A model generated the notes under the pieces. That model ran no database searches, had not been told where the DNA came from, and saw nothing but the letters and a program-made list of their open reading frames with translations. A stretch of 64,000 nucleotides of DNA from Acidimicrobiaceae bacterium (GTDB taxonomy: Bacteria; Actinomycetota; Acidimicrobiia; Acidimicrobiales; Acidimicrobiaceae), in NCBI GenBank assembly GCA_013044385.1, contig JABEUN010000081.1, forward strand, positions 1 through 64,000, in the 5' to 3' direction. This document shows, one piece after another, positions 27,114 to 44,002 of this stretch; position 1 is the stretch's first letter, and every line of letters begins with the position of its first letter. The position numbers and the translations under genes were made by a program.

Positions 27114-27488
27114 GTGGAAACAGGCAACGCAGAGCTCAAAGATCAGGTTCGCATCGAGATGGAAGACCTCGTCGACAACATGTGCATGGCTTTGAACGAT
27201 CCCAAGCGTCTGATGGTCCTCTGGGCACTACGTGAGGGGCCCCACAGTGTAGGCGAACTCTCCGATCTCCTAGAATCTCCGCCTTCAAACGTATCCCAGC
27301 ACCTCGCGATATTGCGGACCCGAGGTCTTGTTGACACCGAGCGTCAAGGAAATTCGATCTACTATCACCTTCGCCACCCAAAGATCATCGTGGCCATCGA
27401 TCTGCTCCGCGAGGTTCTACGTGACGAGATCGATCGCCGTTCAGGCATCGTGGCCAGCGACTCTCAGGACAGGGGCCGAACTAGGTGA
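27114..27488 (+). CDS. ArsR/SmtB-family transcriptional regulator
   Basis: Small winged-helix repressor (124 aa). Helix-turn-helix region: HSVGELSDLLESPPSNVSQHLAILRTRGLVDTERQGNSIYYHL. The start is GTG at 27114, seven bases after AAGGA. Only one cysteine (Cys24) is present, so neither a CxC metal site nor a two-Cys thiol switch is visible; ArsR regulators known from other sHdr loci carry a Cys pair. Its end overlaps by 25 bases, tail to tail, the last gene of the sulfur operon, so control of that operon is likely but inferred. Confidence 0.85.
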   Translation: METGNAELKDQVRIEMEDLVDNMCMALNDPKRLMVLWALREGPHSVGELSDLLESPPSNVSQHLAILRTRGLVDTERQGNSIYYHLRHPKIIVAIDLLREVLRDEIDRRSGIVASDSQDRGRTR

Positions 27489-28150
27489 ATCCGTCCGTTC
27501 GCCTCGGTGACGCTATAACACGCAAGCGCTGAATCCGCAGGGCCACGGAGGCGCTCGCCTGTCACAAGGTCGAAGCGGCTACCATGGGCGGGGCACGCGA
27601 CCGTAGTTCCATCGATCTCCGATCTAGAAAGCGATACCCCCTGGTGGGTGCAGAGTCCGGTGCAAAGCAGTCTGCCGTCTACCCTCCAGAGCGAAACCAC
27701 TCCAAGTGCAGGAACGTCGACATCAGCAAGATGGCCCACGCGACCCGCCACTTCGCCAACATCGAGCAGAGGCAACAGCCTTTGCTGCGAGGCATCTCTA
27801 GGACGACTTAGCAGACGACGAAGTATCGGTGAAACACTGCCGCGAGTAACGACGACATCGTAGCCAGCGCGTTCCGCGCGTTTCCAGAGAGTGGGATCGG
27901 GGACCGCTATCACGCCTACGACCACTATGTCGCCGCCGAAACGCCTTCTGACATCCGAAAGGGCTTCGTCTACGGCCCCTGTGGTGATTGTGGTTACGAC
28001 GTGGCTCGCCTTCTCATCGCCACCAGTTCCTAGACGGGCATTTGTCCCCTCTAAAGCACGGCGAACAGCCCTAGCCAGAATCTCGTCAAGATCATCTATC
28101 GCAACGATCACTACTTCGCCATGGTCAGAACCAGTTGAGTTGTCCACCAA
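27464..28150 (-). CDS. Two-domain Rieske protein at the end of the sulfur operon
   Basis: Protein of 228 aa. Residues about 1-115 form an unrecognised alpha/beta domain (VVIVAIDDLDEILARAVRRAL, then DIVVVGVIAV and YDVVVTRGS), in outline like a flavodoxin- or receiver-type fold. Residues about 125-228 are a Rieske domain with ligands Cys167/His169 (CTHQG) and Cys186/His189 (CPAHG), of the ferredoxin type. It starts one base from the dsrE2-like stop, so it is the last gene of the operon. An electron-transfer role in sulfur oxidation is inferred from position. I know of no sHdr component with this domain pair. Confidence 0.78.
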   Translation of the reverse strand: MVDNSTGSDHGEVVIVAIDDLDEILARAVRRALEGTNARLGTGGDEKASHVVTTITTGAVDEALSDVRRRFGGDIVVVGVIAVPDPTLWKRAERAGYDVVVTRGSVSPILRRLLSRPRDASQQRLLPLLDVGEVAGRVGHLADVDVPALGVVSLWRVDGRLLCTGLCTHQGVSLSRSEIDGTTVACPAHGSRFDLVTGERLRGPADSALACYSVTEANGRIHLVRPLS

Positions 28151-28648
28151 TTAGATGAACATCGTTATGTCGGCCTCGGCGGCCATGTTTATGAAAGACG
28201 CAGCTCCAATCGGCGCCTCGACCCCCTCGATGAAGTCGTCCTTTTTCAAGCCGTAGAGGTCCATCGTCATCTGACACGGATAGAGTCGAACACCCAGGTC
28301 CTGTGCCATTCCGAGAAGCTCGGTCGGACTCGAGACATTGTGCTCATTCGCCAACATCTTGATCATCTTGGTTCCCATCCCACCGAAGTGGATCTTGCCA
28401 AGCTTGAGGTTATCGGTTCCACCCCGATCTACCAAGGATTCCGCCTTCTGCATCCAGTTAGCGCCCGTACTACGGATCTCATTTCGCTGAAGAACCCGAA
28501 GGCCCCAAAATGTAAAGAAGAGTTCCACTTCTAGCCCAGATGCAGCAGCCGTGGTTGCCAGAATGAGCACCGGCCAGACACGATCAAGATCCGAACTCCA
28601 GCAGATCATGGCCATACTCTTCGACTTTTCCAGTTCTTGTTCGTCCAC
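28151..28648 (-). CDS. DsrE2-like sulfur-carrier protein
   Basis: Protein of 165 aa of the DsrE/F family. Such proteins carry sulfane sulfur on a cysteine and hand it between TusA and other partners. The fold starts at MICWSSDLDRVWPVLILATTAAASGLEVELFFTFWG; two cysteines are present, Cys16 and Cys125 (RLYPCQMTMDL). Cys125 is at the conserved sulfur-binding position of DsrE2-type proteins; the family also often has a membrane helix, which is not obvious here. It lies 97 bp after lbpA on the operon and touches the Rieske gene. Confidence 0.85.
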   Translation of the reverse strand: MDEQELEKSKSMAMICWSSDLDRVWPVLILATTAAASGLEVELFFTFWGLRVLQRNEIRSTGANWMQKAESLVDRGGTDNLKLGKIHFGGMGTKMIKMLANEHNVSSPTELLGMAQDLGVRLYPCQMTMDLYGLKKDDFIEGVEAPIGAASFINMAAEADITMFI

Positions 28649-28745: not shown

Positions 28746-29204
28746 TCACGGGTCCACACAGCGAAAACAGTGGAGCCCGGACTCATCGATTCGTGCTCTG
28801 TAGAACGTGAATGCAGATTGAGCATCGACGAGTTCACCTCCTTCCGCTTCACTGGCAACCTGTAGTCGGTAGAACCATCCAAGTCCGTACGGATCCCGAT
28901 TCGCCAAGGCGATATCGGTGGCGAATGCGCGCTCGTTTGAATCCACGATCTCACCAGTAAGCGGAGCCCGCATAGGCCCGACCCATTTGGCACTCTCAAG
29001 GGCAGCAAGCGGCCTTCCACGCTCCACGACCCTTCCCACCGGCTTCCAGCCGATGTGAACGAGCCGACCGCATCGACTCTGGGAGAAGTCCGTCATTCCC
29101 ACCACCACGGTCCGCTGCGAGACAAAACTCACCCAGGTATCGAAGTCGAGGTCATAGAGCCGATCACTAGGGAATGAGCAGCCCGCCCAGGACAGTTCTG
29201 CCAC
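28746..29204 (-). CDS. Lipoate-binding protein LbpA-like (third copy, divergent)
   Basis: GcvH-like single-domain lipoyl carrier. The lysine for lipoylation is Lys73 in LESAKWVGP, with the fold pattern VVVGMTDFSQS before it and APLTGEIVDSNE, then DPYGLGWFYRLQV, after it. The start GTG 29204 is chosen because it directly follows the TGA of the previous lbpA (TGAGGTG) and gives an N terminus that aligns with that gene (SWAGCSFPSDRLYD against VNGCNLPDELYY). Compared with its neighbour it has extra cysteines (Cys9, Cys45 and two near the C terminus). It is a tandem duplicate that has diverged. Confidence 0.85.
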   Translation of the reverse strand: MAELSWAGCSFPSDRLYDLDFDTWVSFVSQRTVVVGMTDFSQSRCGRLVHIGWKPVGRVVERGRPLAALESAKWVGPMRAPLTGEIVDSNERAFATDIALANRDPYGLGWFYRLQVASEAEGGELVDAQSAFTFYRARIDESGLHCFRCVDP

Positions 29205-29205
29205 C

Positions 29206-29646
29206 TCAATTCCCCTCGCACGAGATCCCCGCTGCATCCAAAAAGGCACGGTATGCCTCGACTCCTTGGACCCCGGTCACCAACTCAACCACGTCCTGCT
29301 CCCAGTCACTCGGATTTACCCGAGCTATCCACCCGTCGCCATAGGGGTCTGAATTTAGAAGTCCTGGATTGGCGAACAGTGACTCGTTGACCGCAACGAT
29401 CTCGCCTTCCACGGGACTTGGAACTGGGCCCACCCACTTTCCACTCTCCACCGTGGCGAGACTCTTTCCGCGCTTGACGGCCTTACCGGCCCCTTTTGCC
29501 GTCACGGAAATTATTGACTTGGCCATGCTTTGGGCTACATCTGTAAGCCCAACCACGATCTCTGACCCCTCGGGTCTCGCCCACACGTGCTTGTCGACTA
29601 CGTAGTAGAGCTCATCGGGAAGATTACAACCGTTGACCGACGCCAT
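29206..29646 (-). CDS. lbpA: Lipoate-binding protein LbpA (tandem copy)
   Basis: Single lipoyl-domain protein related to GcvH but, in sHdr loci, dedicated to sulfur oxidation, where its lipoate is thought to carry the sulfur intermediate. The lipoylation site is Lys70 in VESGKWVGP. The fold pattern is IVVGLTDVAQSMAKSI, PSPVEGEIVAVNESL and DPYGDGWIARV. The start at 29646 has GGAGG six bases upstream; the frame is open to 29685 but would overlap the zinc-finger gene more. A 146-aa length is normal. No glycine-cleavage genes are near, which argues against a GcvH role. Confidence 0.93.
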   Translation of the reverse strand: MASVNGCNLPDELYYVVDKHVWARPEGSEIVVGLTDVAQSMAKSIISVTAKGAGKAVKRGKSLATVESGKWVGPVPSPVEGEIVAVNESLFANPGLLNSDPYGDGWIARVNPSDWEQDVVELVTGVQGVEAYRAFLDAAGISCEGN

Positions 29647-29965
29647 TTGGACCTCCATCGTTTCCTGTGTCGACCTCCGCAGCATCTAGCACATGTTCAC
29701 CGATATAGTGGCCGATGAGCACATTTGTCGCAACTGCGATGATCTCCTCGTGATACACCTGCGAGAATTCAGCCTCGTTGAAATTGAGGCGGATCGGCTG
29801 GCGGTAGCTCTCACCGCAGGTTGGGCAGCAGACTTCATACGCCCAGTGATTACCGTCAGCTGTCACCGAGACGAGATCTCGATGGTCTTCTGCCATATGG
29901 GAGTGCAGCTCCTCGAAATAGCCAACGAAGTCGCAGCTTGGACATTTGACCGTTTCGATTCTCAT
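29624..29965 (-). CDS. Small zinc-finger-like protein in the sulfur operon
   Basis: Unrecognised 113-aa protein. The N terminus has CPSC (Cys8, Cys11) followed by His23 and His28 (HMAEDH), a C2H2 zinc-finger-like spacing. A second Cys group (CCPTC, Cys46/47/50) and a His-rich stretch (IGHYIGEH) follow. It overlaps the membrane oxidoreductase by 4 bases (ATGA) and lbpA by 23 bases, so it is co-translated with them. Its role is unknown; metal binding or thiol chemistry for sulfur transfer is possible. Confidence 0.65.
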   Translation of the reverse strand: MRIETVKCPSCDFVGYFEELHSHMAEDHRDLVSVTADGNHWAYEVCCPTCGESYRQPIRLNFNEAEFSQVYHEEIIAVATNVLIGHYIGEHVLDAAEVDTGNDGGPNGVGQRL

Positions 29966-32139
29966 CCCTGCTCTCCACCTGCTGAGCCTGCACCAACAAG
30001 GCGCGTAGCCTCAGCTACGAGCTCCACGATGTCGACCACCTTGATCCTGCCCTCATTTCCCGTCGTTTTGACCGCATCGGAGAACATCACGTAGTCCTTG
30101 GGGCAGGCGACGACGAACTGCTCGACTCCCAGTTCGGCGGCCTCCCGCATTCGATTCTCACTCGGTCGCTCAGTCAGTACTGAGTCATCCATCCAGATCC
30201 GACCACCACCGGCACCGCAGCAGAAGCTGTTTGTACGGTTCCTAGGCATCTCGACGAGCTCACATCCAGCCAACTCGACCAACCTGCGGGGTTGTTCGAA
30301 GATGCGGTTGTAGCGCCCCAGGTAGCAGGGGTCATGGTAGGTCACCCGTCCGCCGAGATTTGCAAGTGCACCCTCGTTTGTCTCCATTATCTCTAAGAGC
30401 ACTTCGCTGTAGTGAAGAACGGGCTTGTCGAGTCCGTATACCGGATACTCGTTTCGAAGGGTGTTGAAGCTGTGCGGGTCCGTTGTGAAGATCTTGTCGA
30501 AATCGGCACCGGCAAATGCGGCGAGATTCTGCTCCACCAGCATTTCGAATAGCCCCTCTTCGCCTACTCTTCGGACATCGTTTCCAGCGTTGCGTTCATC
30601 TTCGAAGAGAATTCCAAAGCTCACTCCCGCGTCCCGCAACACCGTTGCCAAGATCCTTGATATCTCTCCGAGGCGCTCGTCGAAGGAGGCAAAATCGCCG
30701 AGAAACCACAGATACTCAACGTGCTGTTTCCGCGCATCGACCAAGTCGAAGTCGAGCCCCTTAGCCCACCTGGCACGCATCCGCGCCGACTTGCCAAAGG
30801 AGTTCCCCTGGGTGGCCAAGTTCTCCAGAGCGCTCTGGAGAGTCGGATCCATGGTCCCCTCGTCAACAAGGCTCCGCCTGAGCGAAACGATCGTGGGAAC
30901 GTGCTCTATGCCTACGGGACAGATCTCCACGCATGCCATACAGGTCGTGCAGGACCATAGCGTCGCAGGAAGTATCACGTCACCTGCGAGGCGTCCACCA
31001 GCTACAAGTGGTCCAGATGCAGTTGGCCGCTGCTCCCAATCCAGGACCATGGAGAGGCCTGCGCTACGGTCCGCCCACTGCCGGAGGTCCAAAATGAGAT
31101 CACGCGGTGAGAGCGGGGCTCCCCCGGTTCGAGCAGGGCAGACTGAATGACACCGACCACATTTGGTACACGCGTCTAAGGACAGAAGTTCCTTGGACGT
31201 GAAGTCATCGAGCGACCTGTAACCAGGATGATCGAGGTTATTTGCCGGCAAACGACGGGTTGCCGAAGAGTCCCGCACGAGCAAATTCGCCGGCGCAGTC
31301 ATTATGTGAATCGCTTTGGACCACGGGATATACGCGACGAACGCCAAAGCCATTGCTATATGGATCCACCATATCCACAGGTGGATGGCGGCGGCAGAGG
31401 TCGACGAAATGCCAATACCGTGCATCGCACTTGCGATGGCATAGCCCATCCACGTCCAACGCTCGTAGGGGGGGAATCTGCTTGCGTCGATCCGCAGAGC
31501 CTGAATAAGAATCCCGGTGACCAAAATCGCTAGCAGGCCGTATGCAAAAAGTAGGTCCCCTGCCGCCATCCTCGCCCTCGAATATCCGTCCTCGGGGATC
31601 TGAGCACGTTTATAGTCGAGGGCAATCGACGTGGATCTCGCCCGACGGACAATGAGTCCAACTAATCCAACGAGGGCAGCTAGGCCAGCTAAGTCGAAAA
31701 TTGCGTTGTAGGCGAGGTAGAAGTGGCCGGTGAAAAAGCTCAGCTCATGGTGGCCGAAGATCCTGGTCAAATTACCGACCACGTCGTAGTCCAAGCTGAG
31801 GATTGTCGTAGCCGCTAACAGCCCCAGGAATCCCCAGAACAGCGCTAGATGAGCTAGCCCTACACCTCGATTGCGCTTGGAAACGGTTCCATTCGAAGCG
31901 ATCTCATGAATCGATCGCGACACTGGCACCGGCCGGGTGATGCCCAGTAGATCCCTGTCGAGGTGTTTGCGGCGAAATCTGGACAGATCTAAAGGACGTC
32001 CGGCGAAATACTTGCGAACTCGGAATGCCAGTCCTACGAAGAAGATCAGGATCGCCACGAATGAGGCCAGGTAGAAGACCACCCTCTCCAACCGCGTCTC
32101 GCCAGCAAAAATCTGTCGCGTCTCGATCACCGTCAACAT
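29962..32139 (-). CDS. Membrane Fe-S oxidoreductase with CCG domains (ETF:membrane oxidoreductase, EMO)
   Basis: Links EtfAB to the quinone pool. Residues 20-290 hold about six membrane segments like the nitrate reductase gamma subunit (cytochrome-b-type). Two [4Fe-4S] sites follow: CTKCGRCHSVCP and CTTCMACVEICP. The last 300 residues are HdrD-like, with one clear CCG site (HDPCYLGRYN ... NSFCCGAGGGRIW) near residue 625-665; the first CCG site has lost its cysteines. The soluble part closely resembles the fused HdrC/B-type protein of the same operon (38542-39855), so the two are paralogues. It lies directly after etfA, as in type II sHdr loci. Confidence 0.88.
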   Translation of the reverse strand: MLTVIETRQIFAGETRLERVVFYLASFVAILIFFVGLAFRVRKYFAGRPLDLSRFRRKHLDRDLLGITRPVPVSRSIHEIASNGTVSKRNRGVGLAHLALFWGFLGLLAATTILSLDYDVVGNLTRIFGHHELSFFTGHFYLAYNAIFDLAGLAALVGLVGLIVRRARSTSIALDYKRAQIPEDGYSRARMAAGDLLFAYGLLAILVTGILIQALRIDASRFPPYERWTWMGYAIASAMHGIGISSTSAAAIHLWIWWIHIAMALAFVAYIPWSKAIHIMTAPANLLVRDSSATRRLPANNLDHPGYRSLDDFTSKELLSLDACTKCGRCHSVCPARTGGAPLSPRDLILDLRQWADRSAGLSMVLDWEQRPTASGPLVAGGRLAGDVILPATLWSCTTCMACVEICPVGIEHVPTIVSLRRSLVDEGTMDPTLQSALENLATQGNSFGKSARMRARWAKGLDFDLVDARKQHVEYLWFLGDFASFDERLGEISRILATVLRDAGVSFGILFEDERNAGNDVRRVGEEGLFEMLVEQNLAAFAGADFDKIFTTDPHSFNTLRNEYPVYGLDKPVLHYSEVLLEIMETNEGALANLGGRVTYHDPCYLGRYNRIFEQPRRLVELAGCELVEMPRNRTNSFCCGAGGGRIWMDDSVLTERPSENRMREAAELGVEQFVVACPKDYVMFSDAVKTTGNEGRIKVVDIVELVAEATRLVGAGSAGGEQG

Positions 32140-32150
32140 GTCGTTCGCGT

Positions 32151-33119
32151 CTACCCTTCAACCAGTTCGACGAGCTCTGGAACCAGATCGAACAGATCGA
32201 GGGTTGTGCCGTAATGGGCGACTTTGAAGATCGGGGCGTTCGGGTCTGTGTTGCACGCGATGATCACCTCGCTCTGACGCATTCCTTCGAGGTGTTCCGG
32301 CGCACCTGAGATACCGAATGACAAGTAGACCTTCGGTTTCACCTTCTTTCCGGACTTGCCGACCTGGTGGGGCTTAGGGAGCCAACCTTGGTCTATTACT
32401 GGACGTGACGCTGACATCGGCACGCCGAGAGCATCAGCCAGTTCCTGGACCACTTCAAGGTTTGCTGATGCTCCAATTCCACGTCCAACGGAGACCAGAA
32501 GCTCCGCAGCAACGATGTCCACACCCGAGGCCTCTGGCTCATGTCGGATTCCCGGCTCGATTGCCAGGCTCCCAACGATGGCATCCAGCGAATGGTTGGA
32601 GACCTCGACATCTCCCACTCCCAGCTGGAGTGCAACAGCACTTCCCGGCACCACACAGGCGATAGCGAAGCCGTCACCAAGGTCGCAGTCAGCTAGCAGC
32701 TTTCCTCCATAGAGTTGGGATGTCGCCTGGATCCGACCTGCATCTACTGATAGTCCAACCACATACGAAGCCAGCGTCGCGTCAAATGCAACGGAGAGTG
32801 CAGAGCATAGGTCAAGGCCAAGAGTCCCTGTGGGGGCCAGCAATAGGCGAGGTCTTATCGCTTCTACCCGAGCAGACAGAGCCGTCACCGCCATCTCCGA
32901 GGAGTACCCGATGGTACCGAAATCGACGTAACAGTCGACAATGTCGCAGCCAACCGCAGTGAGAGCGACATCGGAAGCTCCTATTAGTACTCCGACAAGA
33001 GGTCCACCTAAGGAGTTGGCGACATCTTTTCCAAGGGAGATGAGCTCAAGACTCACGTCGCTCAAGCGGCCGGCAGTGGCTTCGAGTACTACCATGACCC
33101 CGTTGTTCGGTCCACTCAT
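32151..33119 (-). CDS. etfA: Electron transfer flavoprotein alpha subunit
   Basis: EtfA of a dedicated EtfAB pair (322 aa). The C-terminal FAD-binding part is clear: ELLVSVGRGIG, LPKPHQVGKSGKKVKPKVYLSFGISGAPEHLEGM and NTDPNAPIFKVAHYGTTLDLFDLVPELVE. It should take electrons in the cytoplasm and pass them to the membrane oxidoreductase encoded next. The gene follows etfB by 3 bases. In sulfur oxidation loci EtfAB is proposed to take electrons from the sHdr complex; the direction here is inferred from context. Confidence 0.95.
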   Translation of the reverse strand: MSGPNNGVMVVLEATAGRLSDVSLELISLGKDVANSLGGPLVGVLIGASDVALTAVGCDIVDCYVDFGTIGYSSEMAVTALSARVEAIRPRLLLAPTGTLGLDLCSALSVAFDATLASYVVGLSVDAGRIQATSQLYGGKLLADCDLGDGFAIACVVPGSAVALQLGVGDVEVSNHSLDAIVGSLAIEPGIRHEPEASGVDIVAAELLVSVGRGIGASANLEVVQELADALGVPMSASRPVIDQGWLPKPHQVGKSGKKVKPKVYLSFGISGAPEHLEGMRQSEVIIACNTDPNAPIFKVAHYGTTLDLFDLVPELVELVEG

Positions 33120-33122
33120 GCC

Positions 33123-33905
33123 CTAATTCCCCTTCCTCGATCCGGCGACACCTTTTGCCACCAGCACGTCATAGATCGCAGAAGCGACCTCCTTCGGTTT
33201 GCCTTCCAGCATCGTCGCCGTTCCGCTCGCCTCCGGTGCATACAGTCGCAACACCTGGGGCGTATTTCCGAAACTCTCTCCAGTCACTGGTACCTTTTCT
33301 ATGGTCGCTTCTGCCATGACTTGACGGATCCGCGAGATCGGAACGTAACGTGGAGCCTGTCGCGCCGACTGAACGCCGAGCACTAGTGGAAGCCTCGCCC
33401 GCGAGACGCTAGTTACCCCACCGCCAAGCTCCTGAGTAATGTGAGCTTCGCTGCCTTCCACTGAAATATTTGTCACCACCGAGGCGTGTGCAACTCCGAG
33501 CATTGCCCCAATAGCACCCGCCAATTGACCGTTTAAGTCGTCGGCCGCCTGCACACCGGTCAACACCAGATCGAAGTCGCACTCTCGGATAAACCACGCG
33601 AGGGCCGCCGCCCGCTGCCTCGTAGGAATCCACCCCTCGAAGTCGCCCGTCAGTTCAACGGCCCGATCGGCTCCCTTAGCTAACGCGGCGTGCAGGGTCT
33701 GGTGAAAATCAACTTCTTCGATCCCGACTACCGTTACCGTTCCCCCGTAGGCCTCCTTGAGACAGAGTGCCTCCTCGAGAGCCGCTTCATCCCACTCGTT
33801 CGACACGAATTTCACAAACTCCCGGTCGATGTCGGTCCCAGAAGAGTCGACCTCCAGCTCCTCGACGAGATCGGCCAGCTGGCGCATAGCCACGATGATG
33901 TTCAT
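33123..33905 (-). CDS. etfB: Electron transfer flavoprotein beta subunit
   Basis: EtfB partner of the alpha subunit (260 aa). It has the EtfB pattern EWDEAALEEALCLKEAYGGTVTVVGI, HAALAKGADRAVEL and the AMP/FAD-binding loop LVLTGVQAADDLNGQLAGAIGAMLG. The alpha-subunit gene follows 3 bases on and lipS2 ends 6 bases before. Whether this pair binds one or two FAD (bifurcating type) cannot be decided by eye. Confidence 0.95.
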   Translation of the reverse strand: MNIIVAMRQLADLVEELEVDSSGTDIDREFVKFVSNEWDEAALEEALCLKEAYGGTVTVVGIEEVDFHQTLHAALAKGADRAVELTGDFEGWIPTRQRAAALAWFIRECDFDLVLTGVQAADDLNGQLAGAIGAMLGVAHASVVTNISVEGSEAHITQELGGGVTSVSRARLPLVLGVQSARQAPRYVPISRIRQVMAEATIEKVPVTGESFGNTPQVLRLYAPEASGTATMLEGKPKEVASAIYDVLVAKGVAGSRKGN

Positions 33906-33911
33906 AGTTCC

Positions 33912-35018
33912 TTACTCCTCAGTGATGAGTTGACCCAGATCAAGTTCGCCGCGTATCGCCGCAAGATCGACGACGTCAGGCATAAAAGGAAAATCTCGAA
34001 ACTGTTCACTCGGCCGGTACGAACCGTACGGACGGGTGCAGCCGGGTTCGCCCGACTCACCAGGGCACCCATTGGTCATAAAGGCGATGCCCTCGTCAAC
34101 GACGTCCTCCACGGCTACACGCGCGCCTCGGATACCGATCAGTGCCCCAGAGGCATCGAAATCGAAATCTCCCCTGCTGTATCCGTGCTCCTCAACTAGG
34201 CGTTTGGCAAGCTGGATCCTCCGCCAACGTCTGATGGTCGACTTTGGCGCCTCACCAAGACGAGAGTCCGGCTCCGGATTGAAACAGAAGAGGTACGCAA
34301 ACACCTCCATCCAGGCGAGTCGCCAGAAGATCTCTAGGAGATCCTCGTCTGTCTCACCAAGGCCGACCACGGTGTGGCAGTTGACTTTCCATGGACCGAA
34401 GATTTCGCGGGAGTCCCTAACCACAGACCAGTACTTGTCCCAGGAAAGACCCGCACCGCCAGCGGGGACATCGGTTCGATGCTTACTGAAGAGTTCCTCG
34501 GTCACCGCATCCAGACCGATTCCGATCATGTCGACTCCCGCCTCAGCGAACCCTTCCAGTTTCGTTCGATTGAGCGTCGGTGGCGCTACCAGAATCGAAA
34601 GTGGCGTCGTCACTTTGCGGCGGATTCTCTTGGTGATCTCCAGGGTGTCGCGATAGGCGAATGGGCTGGTCACCATCGAGATACACAGCCTCGTCAACGT
34701 CTCTGCCTTCTCGGCCATTCGATCGACGAGGACATCTGTTTCAATCAGTGGCCATTCAACTCGAATGAAAGACTTATCCTCGTAACTACCTGGGCGAGTC
34801 CTAGCGAGTCCACAGTACGAACAGTCGCTTCGACATCCATCTTCGTAATTGAGCAGCAAGTTGATGCCGCCGAATGCGAAGTCGCGAGAGAACCTGCCCG
34901 ATCGGAATGAAAGTGCCATCGCCGATGCAGCAGAGATTCTCACGTACTCCGGGCTCGTCCCTCCCACAATCTCACGGCGGGGACGGAACTTCGGTTCAAC
35001 ACCTACCGTCGTCGTCAT
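33912..35018 (-). CDS. lipS2: Radical-SAM lipoyl synthase subunit LipS2
   Basis: One half of the two-component lipoyl synthase (LipS1/LipS2), in which each radical-SAM enzyme inserts one sulfur into octanoyl-lysine. The SAM cluster motif is CRSDCSYCGLARTRPG near residue 65-80; VGLGETDEDLLEIFW is a typical radical-SAM strand-helix. The C terminus has a Cys pair in NGCPGESGEPGCTRPYG, a candidate site for the auxiliary cluster. The start at 35018 forms an ATGA overlap with the ligase gene; 368 aa. Its target is presumably the LbpA proteins. Confidence 0.9.
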   Translation of the reverse strand: MTTTVGVEPKFRPRREIVGGTSPEYVRISAASAMALSFRSGRFSRDFAFGGINLLLNYEDGCRSDCSYCGLARTRPGSYEDKSFIRVEWPLIETDVLVDRMAEKAETLTRLCISMVTSPFAYRDTLEITKRIRRKVTTPLSILVAPPTLNRTKLEGFAEAGVDMIGIGLDAVTEELFSKHRTDVPAGGAGLSWDKYWSVVRDSREIFGPWKVNCHTVVGLGETDEDLLEIFWRLAWMEVFAYLFCFNPEPDSRLGEAPKSTIRRWRRIQLAKRLVEEHGYSRGDFDFDASGALIGIRGARVAVEDVVDEGIAFMTNGCPGESGEPGCTRPYGSYRPSEQFRDFPFMPDVVDLAAIRGELDLGQLITEE

Positions 35019-37520: not shown

Positions 37521-38542
37521 CTGACGGTCTCCTTCTGACCCAGTGCACCGACACCTGCTAAACGTGCCTCGACTCCGGCGGCTGGAATCCCCATCGAATG
37601 GAGCACCTCGATAGCGTCGAAAGGAGGTCGCCCACTGACCTCCACCACGTCACTGGCTACCCCATTGCGCAGGATCACCAGCCGCTCAACAAATCCAAAA
37701 ACCACCGTCAGGACGTAGATCGGGGACCCAGCTAACGGAAAGACCGCGTAGACGCCCGATCGAATCTTGATAATGTGGGGCTCTATCGGTTTCGCAGGTG
37801 GGAACTCCGGCAAGAGAACAGACTCCGGTGCGGACAGCTTCTGGTCGAACTCTTCTATCGAGCGCCATTCCGAATCGGAAACCACCCCTCGATAGGATTC
37901 GAGTTCAAGAGCAGCACTTAGCGATATGGATGCGGACGTTACGAAGTCAGCTTGCTGCCCAGTTGGTCGTGTCGATGCGACAAATCTCCCCATCAGTTCG
38001 GACAGGACATCGACGACCATCGGATGAGGAGTGGCAAGAACCGAAGCGGCGGTGCTTGCGTCGAAGTGTTGGATCAGGTTCCCGACAACGGCCATTCCCC
38101 CGTCGATCTCACCTGCGCCATGACCGCACACCTTGGTATCTCCGACAACAATCTCACCTGTGGAATCCATCATTGCGTCTAGACCCACCGCCGCATACGC
38201 TGCAAGAAAAGGGGTGAGTAACCGATTGATGACCGCAGACCGAGCCCCACGGTATCTGCCCAAGGGGGCAATGACCTGGAAGAAAAGCTGATCTGCATCA
38301 AGATAAACCGAACCGCCACCAACCATGCGTCTGATGACACCGATGCCCATCGACTGAATCGCCTCCCAGTTCAGCTCCTCATGGCTACGGTGCGCCCCGA
38401 TACCGACATAGGGAGCTTCCGGACTCATGAATGCCAATGTGGTCGGAGTCGTCGGCTCGGCTGCCGACGTGAGCCCGTGCCAGATCGACTGAGAGCGAAG
38501 GGGTGAAACCACTCCGAAGTCGATGACCCGCAAGCCGTCCAT
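37517..38542 (-). CDS. Divergent lipoate-protein ligase-like protein
   Basis: Biotin/lipoate protein ligase family protein of 341 aa. The catalytic fold is visible: IRRMVGGGSVYLDADQLFFQVI, then GEIVVGDTKVCGHGAGEIDGGMAVVGNLI with the expected Lys. The lysine-Asn-Asp segment before it is changed compared with the operon's other ligase, and the nucleotide-binding GGGA is GGGS. The C-terminal part (about 250-330) again resembles an LplB-like domain. It could be a second ligase with a different LbpA preference, or an octanoyl/lipoyl amidotransferase. It starts by overlapping the shdrB3-like stop (TGATG). Confidence 0.75.
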   Translation of the reverse strand: MDGLRVIDFGVVSPLRSQSIWHGLTSAAEPTTPTTLAFMSPEAPYVGIGAHRSHEELNWEAIQSMGIGVIRRMVGGGSVYLDADQLFFQVIAPLGRYRGARSAVINRLLTPFLAAYAAVGLDAMMDSTGEIVVGDTKVCGHGAGEIDGGMAVVGNLIQHFDASTAASVLATPHPMVVDVLSELMGRFVASTRPTGQQADFVTSASISLSAALELESYRGVVSDSEWRSIEEFDQKLSAPESVLLPEFPPAKPIEPHIIKIRSGVYAVFPLAGSPIYVLTVVFGFVERLVILRNGVASDVVEVSGRPPFDAIEVLHSMGIPAAGVEARLAGVGALGQKETVR

Positions 38543-39855
38543 CAGGCGACAACTTCTTCGCCAACGGGTGCCATCGCAAGCTCGAGGAGCTCGGCTATGT
38601 CCATCACTTCGAGATGATCGTTGCCGGTCGATTTGGCCGCATCTTCAAAACGGGATACTTCATATGGACAACAGACAGCCAAAACCTCTGCACCTGTATC
38701 GACGGCTTCACGCACGCGACGCTCAGACAATCGTTCACTCAGGTGGTTCGAGTTAAAGCCGTCCAACCACATCCCACCACCGCCGCCGCCACAGCAGTAT
38801 GCGTTCTCCCGACAACGTCCCATTTCGACGAAGTTAAGTCCTGGAATTGCATTCAACAGGGTGCGTGGAGCGTCATACTCTCCGTTATGCCGACCTAGGT
38901 AGCAGGGATCGTGAAAAGTGACAACCTTGTTTATCTCCCGCGATAGGGGGATTCGGTCGATCACCTGTGCGAGAAGTTGTGTGTAGTGTTGAACTTCGAA
39001 TACGTGACCCCTCTTGGGGTACTCCTTGACGAGGGCATTAAAACCATGGGGGTCCGGCGTGACAATGCGTGCAAACTCGTACTTGGCCAGCGTTGTGACT
39101 ACGTCTTCCATCAGCGCCTCGAATAGACCCTTTTCGCCGGCAAGGCGCTGGGAGTCACCTATGGTTTTCTCCTCTGCCCCGAGAATCGCAAAGTCCACGC
39201 CAGCCCGATCGAGAATGCGGACGAATGAACGCGCGGCCTGTTGGCCGCGTGGGTGGTAACTCCAATAGTCCTCCACGTAGAACAGAACGTCGACAGGTGA
39301 CGGATCTGACGAAAGCACCCTGACCTCGACACCGGCCTCCTTGGTCCAGCCGTGGCGCCTCCGGGGGTTTTCGCCAAGGGCATTGCCATAACGAAATGTC
39401 TTCTCGAACACAACCTGGAGCTCTTCTGGAACCGATCCAGCAAGAACCGCAGCTTCCCGCACGGCTGGCATGATCTCGATCATGTTCACTTCCTTGGGAC
39501 ATACCCTCAAACAGTTCGCGCAGGTCGTGCACTTCCAGAGGTCGTCAGAGGTGAAAAGATCCATCCCCGTCTGCACCTTGCGATGCAGCTTCCGGGGGCC
39601 ATACTCCGATACCAGGTCGACCGGGCAGACCGGTACACATTTCCCGCACCCATAGCAGTATTCGAGGCTCTCGCCTCCCTCTAACGCCGCTACCTTGCCT
39701 AGTCCCTCGTAGCTGTAGTCCGTCAAGACCCTTGACTCGAGCATCCGATTCCATTGACCTGAAACATCCCAGGCTCGCCCGGAGAGGGTCGATGTAACGC
39801 TCGCCTCCTCCAGTTCGTGGACGATTGGCGCCTGCTTCCTACCGCCGATTGGCAC
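38542..39855 (-). CDS. HdrC-HdrB fusion, sHdrB3-like subunit
   Basis: Subunit of the sHdr complex that replaces the separate HdrC2 and HdrB2 of type I systems. The N-terminal part carries two [4Fe-4S] sites (CYGCGKCVPVCP and CTTCANCLRVCP). The C-terminal part is HdrB-like with one intact CCG site (HDPCYLGRHN ... NAYCCGGGGGGMW, then VCCPYE); the first CCG half has no cysteines. The start GTG 39855 is preferred, as AAGGGGGG lies before it; the frame is open to 39906 and overlaps the previous gene. It gives 437 aa. The paralogous membrane oxidoreductase (29962-32139) has the same order of sites. Confidence 0.85.
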   Translation of the reverse strand: MPIGGRKQAPIVHELEEASVTSTLSGRAWDVSGQWNRMLESRVLTDYSYEGLGKVAALEGGESLEYCYGCGKCVPVCPVDLVSEYGPRKLHRKVQTGMDLFTSDDLWKCTTCANCLRVCPKEVNMIEIMPAVREAAVLAGSVPEELQVVFEKTFRYGNALGENPRRRHGWTKEAGVEVRVLSSDPSPVDVLFYVEDYWSYHPRGQQAARSFVRILDRAGVDFAILGAEEKTIGDSQRLAGEKGLFEALMEDVVTTLAKYEFARIVTPDPHGFNALVKEYPKRGHVFEVQHYTQLLAQVIDRIPLSREINKVVTFHDPCYLGRHNGEYDAPRTLLNAIPGLNFVEMGRCRENAYCCGGGGGGMWLDGFNSNHLSERLSERRVREAVDTGAEVLAVCCPYEVSRFEDAAKSTGNDHLEVMDIAELLELAMAPVGEEVVA

Positions 39856-40615
39856 GTGCACCCCCCTTCGACTCGTAAATACCCAGCACTCGCTCGGCGA
39901 GTTCACCGAGATTGGGAAGGATCTTGGTGAACTCTTTGGACATTCGCATCTCGAGCACGCTCGTCATGTAGACCCCATAGACGAGGCCGAGGAAAATATC
40001 CATTGACCACGGTCCCGAATCGGCCCACCGGACTCTCCCGCCGAGCATGGTCGAGTGCAGATACGCGATAACTGAAGCGGTCTTCGCTGCCCGTTCATCC
40101 AGGTCAGCCCCGTAAAGGTCCACACCTTCGTTACAGATCAGTGCGAGTGCTCCACTTTCGGTATCGGGATCGAAGACCCACCTTGAAAGCAGTGGTGTCC
40201 CATTCGGATCTGCGAAATGGGCGAATTCAAACGGAAGGTCAGCAACCTTCTCGCCGACGCGCTGACAAAGCACTCGCATTGGCGAAGTCCGTTCGGTCAA
40301 ACTAAGCGCCGATGGAGCGAGCGCCGTCAACGCTGATGCAAGTTCGTCAACTTCTGCTACGACTAACAACTCACGCTGGCTACGCCTTGACAGGTTCGAG
40401 CACCCAAGCAACTCGGATATACACTCTCCAGCCGTGTCAGGGTTGCGTGTCAAATCGTCGATAAGACTCCTGATCGCAGCGGATTTTGCAGCGGCACGCA
40501 GTTGTGCCCGGTCGATGAAAAGGTCATCGACACGAGTCGAAATGGCATCGGAGAACTCCCGTATAGCCTCTAGATCTGCCTCCTGACGCCTCACTGCAGT
40601 CACCATCGTGTTCAC
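39839..40615 (-). CDS. sHdr-associated hypothetical protein (Hyp)
   Basis: Protein of 258 aa, predicted cytoplasmic and mainly helical, with no known catalytic motif. It has the position of the hyp gene found after hdrA in sHdr loci (C1-B1-A-hyp). The end of its frame, MDIFLGLVYGVYMTSVLEMRMSKEF, and the YLHSTMLGGRVRWADSGPWSMDI segment look like the more conserved part. Cysteines are few. Role unknown, but it is a constant partner in this type of cluster. It touches the hdrA stop. Confidence 0.8.
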   Translation of the reverse strand: MNTMVTAVRRQEADLEAIREFSDAISTRVDDLFIDRAQLRAAAKSAAIRSLIDDLTRNPDTAGECISELLGCSNLSRRSQRELLVVAEVDELASALTALAPSALSLTERTSPMRVLCQRVGEKVADLPFEFAHFADPNGTPLLSRWVFDPDTESGALALICNEGVDLYGADLDERAAKTASVIAYLHSTMLGGRVRWADSGPWSMDIFLGLVYGVYMTSVLEMRMSKEFTKILPNLGELAERVLGIYESKGGARANRR

Positions 40616-41698
40616 TCAAACTCCCACACCGGCGAGGGAGATTGAAGCTGCCTTGGCTCCAGCAAAACCGCCAGTCGATACACAGTCCTCGAGATCAGCG
40701 GGCCCAAGTGCAGACCCAACAGCGAAGATGCCCGGACGGGAGGTCGAAACTGTGTCCAAAGGAGGATTGACAGCCTCGATAAAGCCGTACTTATTCTGCG
40801 CAATCCCGAGGACACCGGCCATGGCCCTTGTACCCTCCGAAGGTTCCATCCCGACCGAGAGTACGACGAGGTCCATTGGCACCTCCATTGGCCTGCCCAT
40901 CGTGGTGTCCTCACCTCGAACTAGCAATCGACCATCCTTGGGCAGGACCTCAGTGATGATGCCCTTCACATACTGCACATGGTGTTTCTCCTGTGCGGGC
41001 CAGTAGATCTGACTCTCCCAATAGCCATACATGCGCATGTCGATATAGAAGATGAACACCTCGACACCTGGGACCGCCAACCGGACCTCAATCGCCTCTT
41101 TGGAGGCGACCCCACAGCACACCTTGGAACAGTACTCATTACCGATCTGACGATCACGGGACCCGACACACTGAACAAAACAGACACGCTTTGGCGCTTC
41201 GCCGTTCGATGGACGCACTACCTGACCGCTCTTGAGCATCGCCTCCAGATCCTGGAGGGCGATAACATCATCAAATTCGTAGTATCCGTACATCTGGGTC
41301 TCACGCCCCGGGTCGAAGTGCGAAAAACCAGTTGCGACGACGATCGAAGCTGCTGAGAGTGACTCCTGCTCGCCTCGGTGTTCGATGACGATCGAGAAGT
41401 CCCCCTTCTCTCCTGTACAGCTGATCACTTTGCTCTCGTAGCGCACCGAAACGTTGCTCATGGCTAGCAGGGGACTTACCATCTCGCCGATCGCCTCTTC
41501 GGCACTGCGCAGATATGGCGTCAACGAGGCGTAGTTCTCCTCAATCGGTCGACCTCCCAGATATGCCAGGCGTTCTACAATGACGACATCTACTCCGAAT
41601 TCGGCGGCGGTGCGCGCTGCAGCTATTCCCGCTGGACCGCCGCCTATGACTACGACTCTCCCGTTTGGCACCGGTGATTCCCCTTCCCTCGTGCCCAT
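40616..41698 (-). CDS. hdrA: sHdrA, FAD and Fe-S subunit of the sulfur-oxidising Hdr complex
   Basis: Flavoprotein subunit of the sHdr complex (360 aa). An N-terminal FAD-binding motif (VVVIGGGPAGIAAARTA, about residues 15-31), a middle cysteine group FVQCVGSRDRQ then EYCSKVCCG for a [4Fe-4S] cluster, and a final FAD motif IFAVGSALGPADLEDCVSTG. It is the short form without the N- and C-terminal extensions of methanogen HdrA, which fits sHdrA. In transcription order hdrB1 lies just before it and hyp just after. Confidence 0.93.
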   Translation of the reverse strand: MGTREGESPVPNGRVVVIGGGPAGIAAARTAAEFGVDVVIVERLAYLGGRPIEENYASLTPYLRSAEEAIGEMVSPLLAMSNVSVRYESKVISCTGEKGDFSIVIEHRGEQESLSAASIVVATGFSHFDPGRETQMYGYYEFDDVIALQDLEAMLKSGQVVRPSNGEAPKRVCFVQCVGSRDRQIGNEYCSKVCCGVASKEAIEVRLAVPGVEVFIFYIDMRMYGYWESQIYWPAQEKHHVQYVKGIITEVLPKDGRLLVRGEDTTMGRPMEVPMDLVVLSVGMEPSEGTRAMAGVLGIAQNKYGFIEAVNPPLDTVSTSRPGIFAVGSALGPADLEDCVSTGGFAGAKAASISLAGVGV

Positions 41699-41713
41699 CT
41701 CATTTCGATATGA

Positions 41714-42901
41714 CTAGACACCGACATCGGCCCAGGTCAGGTATTGCTGCTCATTTGCTTCGAGCTTCTTGAGATCCTTTTGGAAATCGGCCCAAGCCGC
41801 CTCCCAGTCGATACCCATCTTCTCGAGCAGCGGCCGGTAGTTGGTAGAGTGCCAGTGCAGTTGCGCAACCTTGAACGGGTGAGCACCCATGGAGATCGCT
41901 GCAAACTGAGCCTCCGACATCACCGGTACTCCCACGTTGCGATCGTGGGCTTGAGTTGCAAACTGGCTCTTGTCTAGTGCGGTGACACAGCCCGTATCAT
42001 GCGTAAGTACAACGTCCGGATCGGCCTCTGCCTTCATTACCTCGATCTTGCGGAGAGTGGCGAAGGATCGCGTGAAATCCCGCTGCACGAGAATATGACG
42101 GAAACCGAAACCGCAGCAGTCGAAGAAGGTTGAATAGCTACGCAGGTCCGCCCCGAGTGCCTGGACTAGCCCAGAAACCGCAGCAGTGCGCTGGCCGTGA
42201 TAAACGTCAGGATCATAGATCGCGTCGCCCTCAACTAGCTTGTAGTAGTGGCAGGCCGGGTGCACCGTGACGGCCACCCCCGATAGGTCGAGGATGCGCG
42301 CTGATGCTATCTCGTCCTTCATCGCATACAGCCATTCGGAATAGTGGACGATCTCTTCGGGGATCACCATCTCCTTGCCGAGTTTGCCGAGCACCTTGCG
42401 CACTTGGGCACGCAAGTCAGCGGAGTGAAGTAGTTCTGACCGAACCTCTTTGTAGTGGCCATAGGACGTACCGCAGTGGATCAGCGGAAAGTACCCAGTC
42501 TCATTCGCAGCAGCGAAGTTCCGCAAAGCAACCGCTGCCTGAGCGGCCTGATTAGAGGTGGCACTGGCATAGTAGTTCCACGCCGTGCAGCTGGTCTGGT
42601 CACGAGGGTCGCTGTAGTCGTAACCGAGCTTTCGCATGATCCAGAAGATAGATGTTGAGTATCCCGGGATATGGCCGCACTGTCCACAGGATTTGTGATG
42701 CCACAGGTGACCCTTCTGGATCTTCTTTGGTAGACCGTATTTCGTCGAGACGTTCACATAGTCACCGGTAACACGCTGGACGATCAACTCACCTGCCGCC
42801 TCGAGTGCAAACAGTTCTTCATGGAAGTCGGCGCTGCGTCGATCGGGCGTTCGCTCGAAACTCCGCTTCTTCGACAAAATCACTCCGACCGCATCGCTCA
42901 T
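41714..42901 (-). CDS. hdrB: sHdrB1, CCG-domain subunit
   Basis: HdrB-type subunit (395 aa) that should carry noncubane Fe-S clusters and bind the sulfur substrate. The N-terminal half has CGQCGHIPG, SCTAWNYYAS and IHCGTSYGHY; the C-terminal half has HPACHYYKL, FFDCCGFGF and THDTGC, the two CCG-type sites. The gene starts with a 4-base overlap with hdrC1. The cysteine arrangement is complete, unlike in the two fused CCG proteins of the operon, so this is the best candidate for the catalytic site. Confidence 0.92.
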   Translation of the reverse strand: MSDAVGVILSKKRSFERTPDRRSADFHEELFALEAAGELIVQRVTGDYVNVSTKYGLPKKIQKGHLWHHKSCGQCGHIPGYSTSIFWIMRKLGYDYSDPRDQTSCTAWNYYASATSNQAAQAAVALRNFAAANETGYFPLIHCGTSYGHYKEVRSELLHSADLRAQVRKVLGKLGKEMVIPEEIVHYSEWLYAMKDEIASARILDLSGVAVTVHPACHYYKLVEGDAIYDPDVYHGQRTAAVSGLVQALGADLRSYSTFFDCCGFGFRHILVQRDFTRSFATLRKIEVMKAEADPDVVLTHDTGCVTALDKSQFATQAHDRNVGVPVMSEAQFAAISMGAHPFKVAQLHWHSTNYRPLLEKMGIDWEAAWADFQKDLKKLEANEQQYLTWADVGV

Positions 42902-43617
42902 AACTCGATCCCCTCCTCTTCGAGGCGCTCCTCCATGATCTCTTCCAGGATCATGTGAATGCCACTGTCCACCTCTTTGATCATGTCTAGGGCCCCCGTC
43001 TCCATCCAGATCACATAAAGCTCCAAGATGGTACTCTCAGCCACGTCCCACCCAGTAGATGTAGTGTGGTGTGTCTCCGGCGGGAGTGCCCTACGCCAGA
43101 GACTCAGGTTTTCCGAGACATCTTTCACCTCTGGCCCCCAGTCGGGGAATGCATCGGGCTGGAGCATGTCGGGCGAGACCTGAGTTCCAGTGGACATGAT
43201 CTTGTAAATGATGCGTGAGTAGCCTTCAAGTGCAACTTTTGCACTTCGCAATCCGTTTGTAACCGCTACCTCTCTCATTATCGTGATGATGCCACCGGGA
43301 TTGTTGCCTCTCGGACAGCGAAGGCAGGAGAAGCATTGCGAGCACTCCCAGACGTCCTCTTCAAGTTGCTGAAAGAGGAGTTCAACGTCGTGTCGAGCCG
43401 CAGCTTGGGCGATACGACGTGGGCTGAAATCGTAAAATCGTGCGCTCGGACAGGCCGCAACACAGATTCCACACTCGTAACAGCCGTAAAGATAAGAGGG
43501 CATCCTAGGGTCTGCGAAGACCTGCCCTATAAGGCGTTCCTTCTCAGCATGAGGAACGTCTGTGTGCCCTGCAACACTTTCGACCTTAAAATATGGGTGC
43601 GTGGTGACAGTTGCCAT
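42898..43617 (-). CDS. hdrC: sHdrC1, two-cluster ferredoxin-type subunit
   Basis: HdrC-like subunit (239 aa). The first [4Fe-4S] site is regular, CYECGICVAACP (Cys46, 49, 52, 56). The second reads CSQCFSCLRCP (Cys92, 95, 98, 101), with two residues instead of three before the last Cys. The rest is helical and acidic at the end (LEEIMEERLEEEG). It starts just after the dsrE3-like gene and overlaps hdrB1 by 4 bases. It links the HdrB and HdrA subunits electrically in this family. Confidence 0.9.
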   Translation of the reverse strand: MATVTTHPYFKVESVAGHTDVPHAEKERLIGQVFADPRMPSYLYGCYECGICVAACPSARFYDFSPRRIAQAAARHDVELLFQQLEEDVWECSQCFSCLRCPRGNNPGGIITIMREVAVTNGLRSAKVALEGYSRIIYKIMSTGTQVSPDMLQPDAFPDWGPEVKDVSENLSLWRRALPPETHHTTSTGWDVAESTILELYVIWMETGALDMIKEVDSGIHMILEEIMEERLEEEGIEL

Positions 43618-43618
43618 T

Positions 43619-44002
43619 TCAGAAGGAGATCACCGCATCAGCCGACATCGCTAGATCGTTGAAGGCTGCTCCACCGATCATCTCGACACCGTCTATCAAA
43701 GACTCGTATGTGAGGTCGTTTAAGTCCAATGAAGGTTGACAGACCCAGAGTCGAACCCCAAGGTCGGTGGCCTGGCGAATGAAGTAGGACAGACGCTGTC
43801 CACTATCTCCTTTTGGACCGATCTTGTCCACGACATCGCGCTGTAGCAGAGTCGGGCCATACATGGTGAAGTAGATACCCACCTCTGCCTCCATGGCAGC
43901 AGCAGAGGCCGCCAAGAAGAAGGGAGTGGCAGAGCGACCAGGGTCGCTGACCCCATGTGTCTGGACATAGAGGACCTTGCCCTCACCGTCATTGTTCCAC
44001 AT
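43619..44002 (-). CDS. DsrE3-like sulfur-carrier protein
   Basis: Small DsrE-family protein (127 aa) with one cysteine, Cys88, in RLWVCQPSLDL, the conserved sulfane-carrying position. The N terminus VLYVQTHGVSDPGRSATPFFLAASAAAMEAEVGIYFTMYGP is the usual first half of the fold. In sHdr systems DsrE3 passes sulfur between a rhodanese or other donors and TusA/LbpA; here it directly precedes hdrC1. A second DsrE-type protein, with different cysteines, is at the other end of the operon. Confidence 0.9.
   Translation of the reverse strand: MWNNDGEGKVLYVQTHGVSDPGRSATPFFLAASAAAMEAEVGIYFTMYGPTLLQRDVVDKIGPKGDSGQRLSYFIRQATDLGVRLWVCQPSLDLNDLTYESLIDGVEMIGGAAFNDLAMSADAVISF

What the first reader, a model, noticed from the sequence alone, without database searches (positions are those of the whole stretch)
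27464..28150. Rieske protein with an unknown N-terminal alpha/beta domain as the last gene of the sulfur operon
Seen: complete Rieske ligands (CTHQG, CPAHG) behind about 115 residues of an unassigned fold, fused in one chain and translationally linked to the dsrE2-like gene. I know of no such part in sHdr loci. Inferred: a new electron or redox-sensing partner, or a sensor paired with the convergent ArsR gene.
Basis: partly seen in the sequence, partly recalled or inferred. Interest (0 to 1): 0.6.

Follow-up and report, generated by a model that had tools for sequence, protein, structure and literature searches.

The report
Receiver-like Rieske protein of sulfur oxidation
A small iron-sulfur (Rieske) protein carrying a worn-down copy of a bacterial signalling domain sits in, and travels with, the gene cluster that many bacteria from several phyla use to oxidise sulfur inside the cell; it looks like a so far unnoticed electron-handling or redox-control part of that pathway.

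Summary
Gene 27464-28150(-) encodes 228 aa: about 118 N-terminal residues with no Pfam or NCBIfam match, then a complete Rieske domain (C167/H169, C186/H189). It starts directly at the stop codon of the DsrE2 gene and is the last gene of a type II sHdr sulfur-oxidation operon (sHdrC1-B1-A-H-B3, LbpA, LipS/Lpl, EtfBA, membrane HdrD-like protein).

The unassigned domain can now be named. AlphaFold2 (62 sequences, pTM 0.81) gives an alpha/beta fold whose 50 listed PDB matches are essentially all CheY-like receiver domains. Profile-profile comparison with receivers from the same genome gives 94-95% probability, against under 1% for every control. It is a pseudo-receiver: the acidic pair is mostly gone, the phosphoacceptor Asp is Thr here, the Lys is mostly Arg. 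The alpha4-beta5-alpha5 face is the most conserved part.

Relatives with both domains occur in at least six phyla. Of 54 with at least 2 kb upstream, 51 lie beside sHdr, Etf or lipoate genes; the three others carry sHdrB1 elsewhere in the genome. Co-occurrence with sHdrB1 in the class: p = 5e-15. No paper found names this protein.

Most likely it is a dedicated one-electron carrier or adaptor of the sHdr/EtfAB quinone arm; potential, partner and direction of electron flow are inferred. Pairing with the ArsR gene is not general.

The parts
27464..28150 (-). Gene for the pseudo-receiver-Rieske fusion protein (228 aa, TTG start; GTG at 28147 also possible)
27797..28117 (-). N-terminal CheY-like pseudo-receiver domain (residues about 12-118), without canonical phosphorylation residues
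   Evidence: AlphaFold2 pTM 0.81; Foldseek top hits are receiver domains; hhalign 94-95% against receivers, under 1% for controls
27734..27754 (-). Conserved interdomain motif (EVAGRVG here, DxAGRLG in most relatives; A135, G136, R137, G139 invariant in the 15 closest sequences)
27473..27733 (-). C-terminal Rieske [2Fe-2S] domain (residues about 140-226)
   Evidence: PF00355 41.7 bits; PDB Rieske ferredoxin matches
27644..27652 (-). First Rieske ligand loop, C167-x-H169
   Evidence: invariant in 50 of 50 aligned relatives
27584..27595 (-). Second Rieske ligand loop, C186-P-x-H189, followed by invariant G190-S191 and F193
   Evidence: C186, H189, G190, S191 and F193 50 of 50; P187 49 of 50
28151..28648 (-). 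DsrE2-type sulfurtransferase gene directly upstream
   Evidence: PF13686 153 bits; directly upstream of the Rieske gene in 41 of 69 loci
28746..29249 (-). GcvH-like lipoate-binding protein (LbpA type)
   Evidence: PF01597 91 bits
29206..29685 (-). GcvH-like lipoate-binding protein (LbpA type)
   Evidence: PF01597 120 bits
29624..29965 (-). Small cysteine-rich, probably zinc-binding protein, kept in this place in most loci
29962..32139 (-). HdrD/DsrK-like iron-sulfur protein with CCG domains and a NarI-like N-terminal part; candidate ETF:quinone oxidoreductase
   Evidence: PF02754, Fer4 models, weak PF02665; matches the long membrane hdrC next to etfAB described in PMC4378227
32151..33119 (-). 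EtfA
   Evidence: read from the sequence; conserved synteny
33123..33905 (-). EtfB
   Evidence: read from the sequence; conserved synteny
38542..44002 (-). sHdr core: fused sHdrC2B2 (=B3), Hyp, sHdrA, sHdrB1, sHdrC1, DsrE3
   Evidence: definition of type II from PMC11582611
27114..27488 (+). Convergent ArsR-family regulator with one conserved Cys, lacking the Cys pair of sHdrR/SoxR

Best explanation
The protein is a soluble, cytoplasmic two-domain electron-transfer protein dedicated to type II sHdr sulfur oxidation. The C-terminal Rieske [2Fe-2S] cluster carries single electrons. The N-terminal CheY-like pseudo-receiver, which in this protein cannot be phosphorylated in the usual way, docks the carrier on a partner through its conserved alpha4-beta5-alpha5 face. 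The partner is most likely in the arm that takes electrons from the sHdr/LbpA oxidation of sulfane sulfur through EtfAB and the HdrD-like membrane protein to the quinone pool, much as FixX serves FixABC. Shown here: the two domains, the loss of the receiver phosphorylation site, conservation of the face, and the genetic link to the sHdr/Etf module in at least six phyla. Inferred: the cluster potential, the docking partner, and the direction of electron flow.
For: All four Rieske ligands are invariant in 50 of 50 aligned relatives and the closest solved structures are Rieske ferredoxins. The receiver fold is supported by AlphaFold2, Foldseek and hhalign with controls. Conservation is highest on alpha4-beta5-alpha5 (mean 2.25 against 1.30 bits, p = 4e-5), while the phosphorylation positions vary. 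The gene sits next to sHdr/Etf/lipoate genes in 51 of 54 loci with at least 2 kb upstream, none of 18 Rieske-only control loci has such genes, and the three exceptions have sHdrB1 elsewhere in the genome. Genome co-occurrence with sHdrB1: 12 of 14, p = 5e-15. In SAR324 and Marinimicrobia it lies between sHdrB3 and EtfB; in Acidobacteriota directly after the HdrD-like gene; in two Chloroflexota loci beside NrfD/Fer4 electron-transfer genes, one of them with a molybdopterin oxidoreductase. No oxygenase gene was seen in the conserved neighbourhood.
Against: No direct evidence of electron transfer. About half of the sHdrB1-positive genomes of the class lack the gene although most of their loci have EtfAB and the HdrD-like gene, so it is not essential for the pathway. 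A signalling-type domain is an unusual adaptor for a pure carrier and would suit a sensor.
Confidence: 0.5

Rival explanations
1. It is a redox sensor rather than a carrier: the Rieske cluster reads the redox or oxygen state, and the pseudo-receiver passes this on by binding a partner (an sHdr enzyme, or a regulator such as the neighbouring ArsR), switching the pathway on or off.
For: Receiver domains are signalling modules; the conserved alpha4-beta5-alpha5 face is the usual output face. A convergent ArsR adjoins the gene in many Acidimicrobiia loci, and in this window it lacks the Cys pair of sHdrR/SoxR, so its signal is unknown; PMC12423496 notes that many ArsR regulators of shdr loci lack these cysteines.
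Against: No DNA-binding or enzymatic output domain; ArsR adjoins the gene in only about a third of the loci and not in most other phyla; the most constant neighbours are electron-transfer and lipoate genes.
Confidence: 0.27
2. It works with DsrE2 in sulfur trafficking: the Rieske cluster oxidises or reduces persulfides carried by DsrE2, or keeps DsrE2 in the right redox state.
For: The gene directly follows DsrE2 in 41 of 69 loci, often with overlapping or abutting stop and start.
Against: In the Conexibacter group, Acidobacteriota, SAR324 and Marinimicrobia the Rieske gene stands next to LbpB, HdrD-like or sHdrB3/EtfB genes, without DsrE2 immediately upstream. Apparent DsrE2 fusions were out-of-frame extensions.
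Confidence: 0.12
3. It is an ordinary oxygenase-type Rieske ferredoxin that happens to be parked in the operon and serves a Rieske oxygenase elsewhere.
For: The Rieske domain is closest in sequence and structure to dioxygenase ferredoxins.
Against: The extra conserved domain, the invariant HGS-x-F second loop, the strict co-occurrence with sHdr across phyla and the absence of oxygenase genes nearby.
Confidence: 0.05

Closest known systems
Rieske-type ferredoxins (PF00355; e.g. naphthalene and carbazole dioxygenase ferredoxins, PDB 2qpz, 1vck)
   Same: C-x-H / C-x2-H cluster ligands, soluble, no disulfide cysteines in the loops, 25-31% identity, same fold
   Different: N-terminal pseudo-receiver; invariant HGS-x-F loop instead of the H-x-G or HGG-x-F seen in the aligned dioxygenase ferredoxins; sHdr genes instead of oxygenase genes
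Response-regulator receiver (CheY-like) domains and pseudo-receivers (e.g. KdpE, TadZ/CpaE N-terminal domains, the orphan regulator HP1043)
   Same: Fold with beta1-alpha1-beta2-beta3-alpha3-beta4-alpha4-beta5-alpha5, profile similarity 94-95%
   Different: alpha2 missing; acidic pair mostly lost; phosphoacceptor D only in 33 of 62 and Thr here; Lys replaced by Arg; no Pfam PF00072 match above cut-off; fused to Rieske
Type II sHdr-LbpA sulfur-oxidation system (Dahl group; PMC11582611, PMC6067878 group III; Sulfobacillus hdr cluster II, PMC4378227)
   Same: All named core genes and etfBA in one cluster in this window
   Different: The passages of these papers read here name no Rieske protein as a component, and no paper in the library holds both 'sHdr' and 'Rieske'
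FixABCX (FixX ferredoxin)
   Same: Proposed role: small iron-sulfur protein beside Etf-type flavoproteins and a quinone oxidoreductase (analogy from general knowledge)
   Different: FixX is a [4Fe-4S] ferredoxin; no homology

Membership tests
Rieske [2Fe-2S] protein | Two Cys and two His ligands in C-x-H and C-x2-H loops | tested here: met
   C167/H169 and C186/H189, invariant in 50 of 50; PF00355 above cut-off
Rieske [2Fe-2S] protein | Bound [2Fe-2S] cluster with Rieske EPR signature | not testable with these tools
   needs purified protein
High-potential bc1/b6f-type Rieske | Disulfide Cys pair in the two cluster loops and an N-terminal membrane anchor | tested here: not met
   Position 172 is A, V, S, E, F or Y and position 188 mostly R or A, never Cys; no hydrophobic anchor visible in the sequence
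Response-regulator receiver domain (canonical) | CheY-like fold | tested here: met
   (predicted model, alpha2 missing)
Response-regulator receiver domain (canonical) | Pfam PF00072 profile match | tested here: not met
   1 of 62 members at E = 0.11; profile-profile similarity only
Response-regulator receiver domain (canonical) | Acidic pair, phosphoacceptor Asp, Thr/Ser and Lys of the phosphorylation site | tested here: not met
   Window has D19, D20, T54, V80, R103; family mostly T/G, variable, D or E, H/F/Y, R at these positions
Type II sHdr gene cluster | shdrC1B1AH, fused B3 and etfAB in one syntenic cluster | tested here: met
   Window 32151-44002; definition from PMC11582611
sHdr-associated component (as a gene family) | Gene found with sHdr loci and rarely elsewhere | tested here: met
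   51 of 54 loci with 2 kb or more upstream; exceptions have sHdrB1 elsewhere; p = 5e-15
sHdr-associated component (as a gene family) | Present in all type II sHdr loci | tested here: not met
   11 of 23 sHdrB1-positive genomes in the class lack a full-length match
sHdrR/SoxR-type ArsR regulator (neighbouring gene) | Two conserved sulfane-sulfur-sensing cysteines | tested here: not met
   Only one conserved Cys; criterion from PMC12423496

The most novel reading that the evidence does not exclude
A receiver-derived domain that has given up phosphorylation gates an iron-sulfur cluster: the pseudo-receiver senses or binds an sHdr component (or its redox or sulfur state) and controls whether the attached Rieske cluster passes electrons between the sHdr/EtfAB system and the quinone pool, a regulated electron valve of cytoplasmic sulfur oxidation conserved in at least six phyla.
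Probability: 0.22. Interest if true: 0.78.

Novelty: new variant of a known kind. Interest (0 to 1): 0.6.

Why it matters
How electrons leave the sHdr complex is an open question in sulfur lithotrophy, above all in type II systems, where EtfAB and an HdrD-like membrane protein are only presumed to carry them. A Rieske protein strictly tied to these loci is a concrete, testable candidate for that step or for its control. The receiver-Rieske architecture was not found described in the literature searched, and it gives a cheap marker for sHdr loci in metagenomes.

Tried and rejected
DsrE2-Rieske fusions: long ORFs of 340-560 aa upstream of the Rieske domain in several loci looked like fusions, but they are out-of-frame extensions in high-GC DNA with no DsrE2 match. 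The first AlphaFold model of the whole protein with 15 sequences was too weak in the N-terminal part (pTM 0.52) and Foldseek returned only Rieske matches. Pfam hits of the N-terminal domain to KDPG aldolase (11 of 62 members, best 1e-4) were set aside because the predicted fold and the profile comparison both point to receivers and the match is not shared by most members. The 15-row alignment was too variable for a collection scan; a 9-row subset worked. The ArsR pairing was tested by neighbourhood counts and is not general. Chloroflexota sampled at random: only 1 of 151 genomes, the query itself, has the full-length protein. Literature searches for Rieske together with sHdr or with pseudo-receiver terms found nothing.

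Full report
Observation. The gene lies at 27464-28150 on the minus strand and encodes 228 aa. The DsrE2 gene (28151-28648) ends in TAA directly before its TTG start; in many relatives the DsrE2 stop overlaps the start, as TAGTG or TAATG. Pfam finds PF00355 (41.7 bits, residues 152-212) and nothing above cut-off before it; NCBIfam matches are likewise confined to the Rieske part. Ligands are C167, H169, C186 and H189. The gene is the last of the minus-strand sulfur operon and overlaps the tail of the convergent ArsR gene by 25 nt.

Setting. Upstream, in transcription order, lie DsrE3, sHdrC1, sHdrB1, sHdrA, a hypothetical protein, the fused sHdrC2B2, lipoate ligase, LbpA, LipS1, a second ligase, LipS2, EtfB, EtfA, an HdrD-like iron-sulfur protein with CCG domains and a NarI-like part, a small Cys-rich protein, two further GcvH-like proteins and DsrE2. 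This meets the published definition of a type II sHdr cluster (shdrC1B1AHB3 plus etfAB; PMC11582611) and the group III arrangement of PMC6067878.

Relatives. A search of 60 related genomes gave 16 further full or nearly full relatives within the same family. Wherever the contig reaches far enough, they follow the DsrE2 gene, and most face an ArsR gene. Class-wide, the profile separates full-length matches (E below 1e-36) from Rieske-only matches (E above 1e-21). One partial N-terminal match at a contig edge (G417) is an exception to this gap. A scan of one genome per species added relatives in Ferrithrix, Amycolatopsis, Gordonia, Conexibacter and Paraconexibacter, Chloroflexota, Acidobacteriota, Marinimicrobia, Calditrichota and SAR324. 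The tree groups them broadly by phylum. The scan used peptides from the Rieske part, so more divergent relatives may be missed. Near-identical relatives are not independent.

Neighbourhood. Of 69 distinct relatives, 59 have sHdr, Etf, HdrD-like or lipoate genes on the stretch held. Of the 54 with at least 2 kb upstream (counted from the table), 51 do; one of these (L129) rests on a single weak lipoate-gene match. None of 18 Rieske-only control loci does. The three clear exceptions (L144, L141, L149) carry sHdrB1 elsewhere in their genomes at 66-72% identity. DsrE2 is immediately upstream in 41 of 69. In Conexibacter-type loci LbpB is upstream instead, in SAR324 and Marinimicrobia the gene stands between sHdrB3 and EtfB, and in an Acidobacteriota locus right after the HdrD-like gene. 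In two Chloroflexota loci NrfD/Fer4 genes adjoin it, in one followed by a molybdopterin oxidoreductase.

Co-occurrence. In 395 genomes of the class, 14 have the full-length protein and 23 have sHdrB1; 12 have both (Fisher p = 5e-15). The two others are fragmentary assemblies of one genus, and in one of them (G259) the gene stands beside EtfA, LbpA and DsrE2 (L087). In the phylum sample 3 of 4 carriers have sHdrB1 (p = 4e-6). Conversely, 11 of 23 sHdrB1 genomes lack the protein, most of them with type II loci including EtfAB, so it is an accessory part.

The N-terminal domain. With 62 sequences AlphaFold2 gives pLDDT 88 and pTM 0.81 and the order beta1-alpha1-beta2-beta3-alpha3-beta4-alpha4-beta5-alpha5. 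The 50 listed PDB matches are CheY-like receiver or receiver-like domains (best E 4e-5). The family profile matches receivers of the same genome with 94-95% probability (E 2e-8), whereas DsrE2, EtfA, EtfB, LipS1, ligase, LbpA, ArsR, sHdrA, reversed and column-shuffled controls stay under 1%. PF00072 itself is reached by only one member, at E = 0.11. The canonical phosphorylation site is eroded: the acidic pair is mostly T/G and variable (the window happens to have D19 and D20), the beta3 Asp is kept in 33 of 62 and is Thr in the window, and the beta5 Lys is Arg in 46 of 62. Conservation peaks on alpha4-beta5-alpha5 (W89, E93, R94, G96, D98, R103, G104), the usual partner face of receivers (general knowledge). 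Mean information there is 2.25 against 1.30 bits elsewhere, p = 4e-5.

The Rieske domain. It resembles dioxygenase ferredoxins most and lacks the disulfide cysteines of bc1-type proteins, yet all 50 aligned relatives keep HGS-x-F after the second Cys. In bc1 Rieske proteins the equivalent Ser raises the potential (general knowledge), so an intermediate potential is plausible; this is inference.

Mechanism. Shown: the two domains, the loss of phosphorylation residues, the conserved face, purifying selection on both domains and strict association with the sHdr/Etf module. Inferred: that the pseudo-receiver docks the carrier and that the cluster passes single electrons in the sHdr-EtfAB-quinone arm. 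The sensor reading is the main rival. The ArsR neighbour, whose only conserved cysteine cannot form the sHdrR-type pair, is absent beside the gene in most other phyla.

Novelty. No paper in the library holds both 'sHdr' and 'Rieske' or 'pseudo-receiver domain' and 'Rieske'. The papers holding 'heterodisulfide reductase-like', 'sulfur oxidation' and 'Rieske' concern other Rieske proteins. The library lacks most subscription papers, so absence there is not proof. I rate it a new variant of a known kind: a new domain combination and a new accessory part of a known pathway.

Noticed in passing
window 2377-2724 (-): A second, stand-alone Rieske ferredoxin (115 aa) lies between SufD-like (2718-3935) and SufC-like (1605-2387) genes; it looks like an ordinary suf-operon ferredoxin without the extra domain.
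   Followed up: partly
window 27114-27488 (+): The convergent ArsR regulator is conserved beside the sulfur operon in many Acidimicrobiia relatives and has one invariant Cys near its N-terminus but not the Cys pair of sulfane-sulfur sensors, so its signal is unknown.
   Followed up: partly
L123:5238-10846 and L114:4834-9023: In Chloroflexota the pseudo-receiver-Rieske gene adjoins NrfD/Fer4 genes, with a molybdopterin oxidoreductase in L123 and a sulfate permease in L114, possibly a SoeABC-like sulfite-oxidising set.
   Followed up: partly
window 27662-27664 (residue C163) and relatives: A further Cys four residues before the first ligand Cys is kept in 16 of 50 relatives, including all 15 of the closest, and is mostly Ala elsewhere; its role is unexplained.
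   Followed up: no
window 29624-29965 (-): A small Cys-rich, zinc-ribbon-like protein of no clear Pfam family is kept in the same place between the HdrD-like and LbpA genes in most loci.
   Followed up: no
L189, L190, L191, L195 and similar loci: Type II sHdr loci of another family of the class carry EtfAB and the HdrD-like gene but no pseudo-receiver-Rieske gene, and several have a divergent DsrE2-like gene at the start of the cluster instead.
   Followed up: partly
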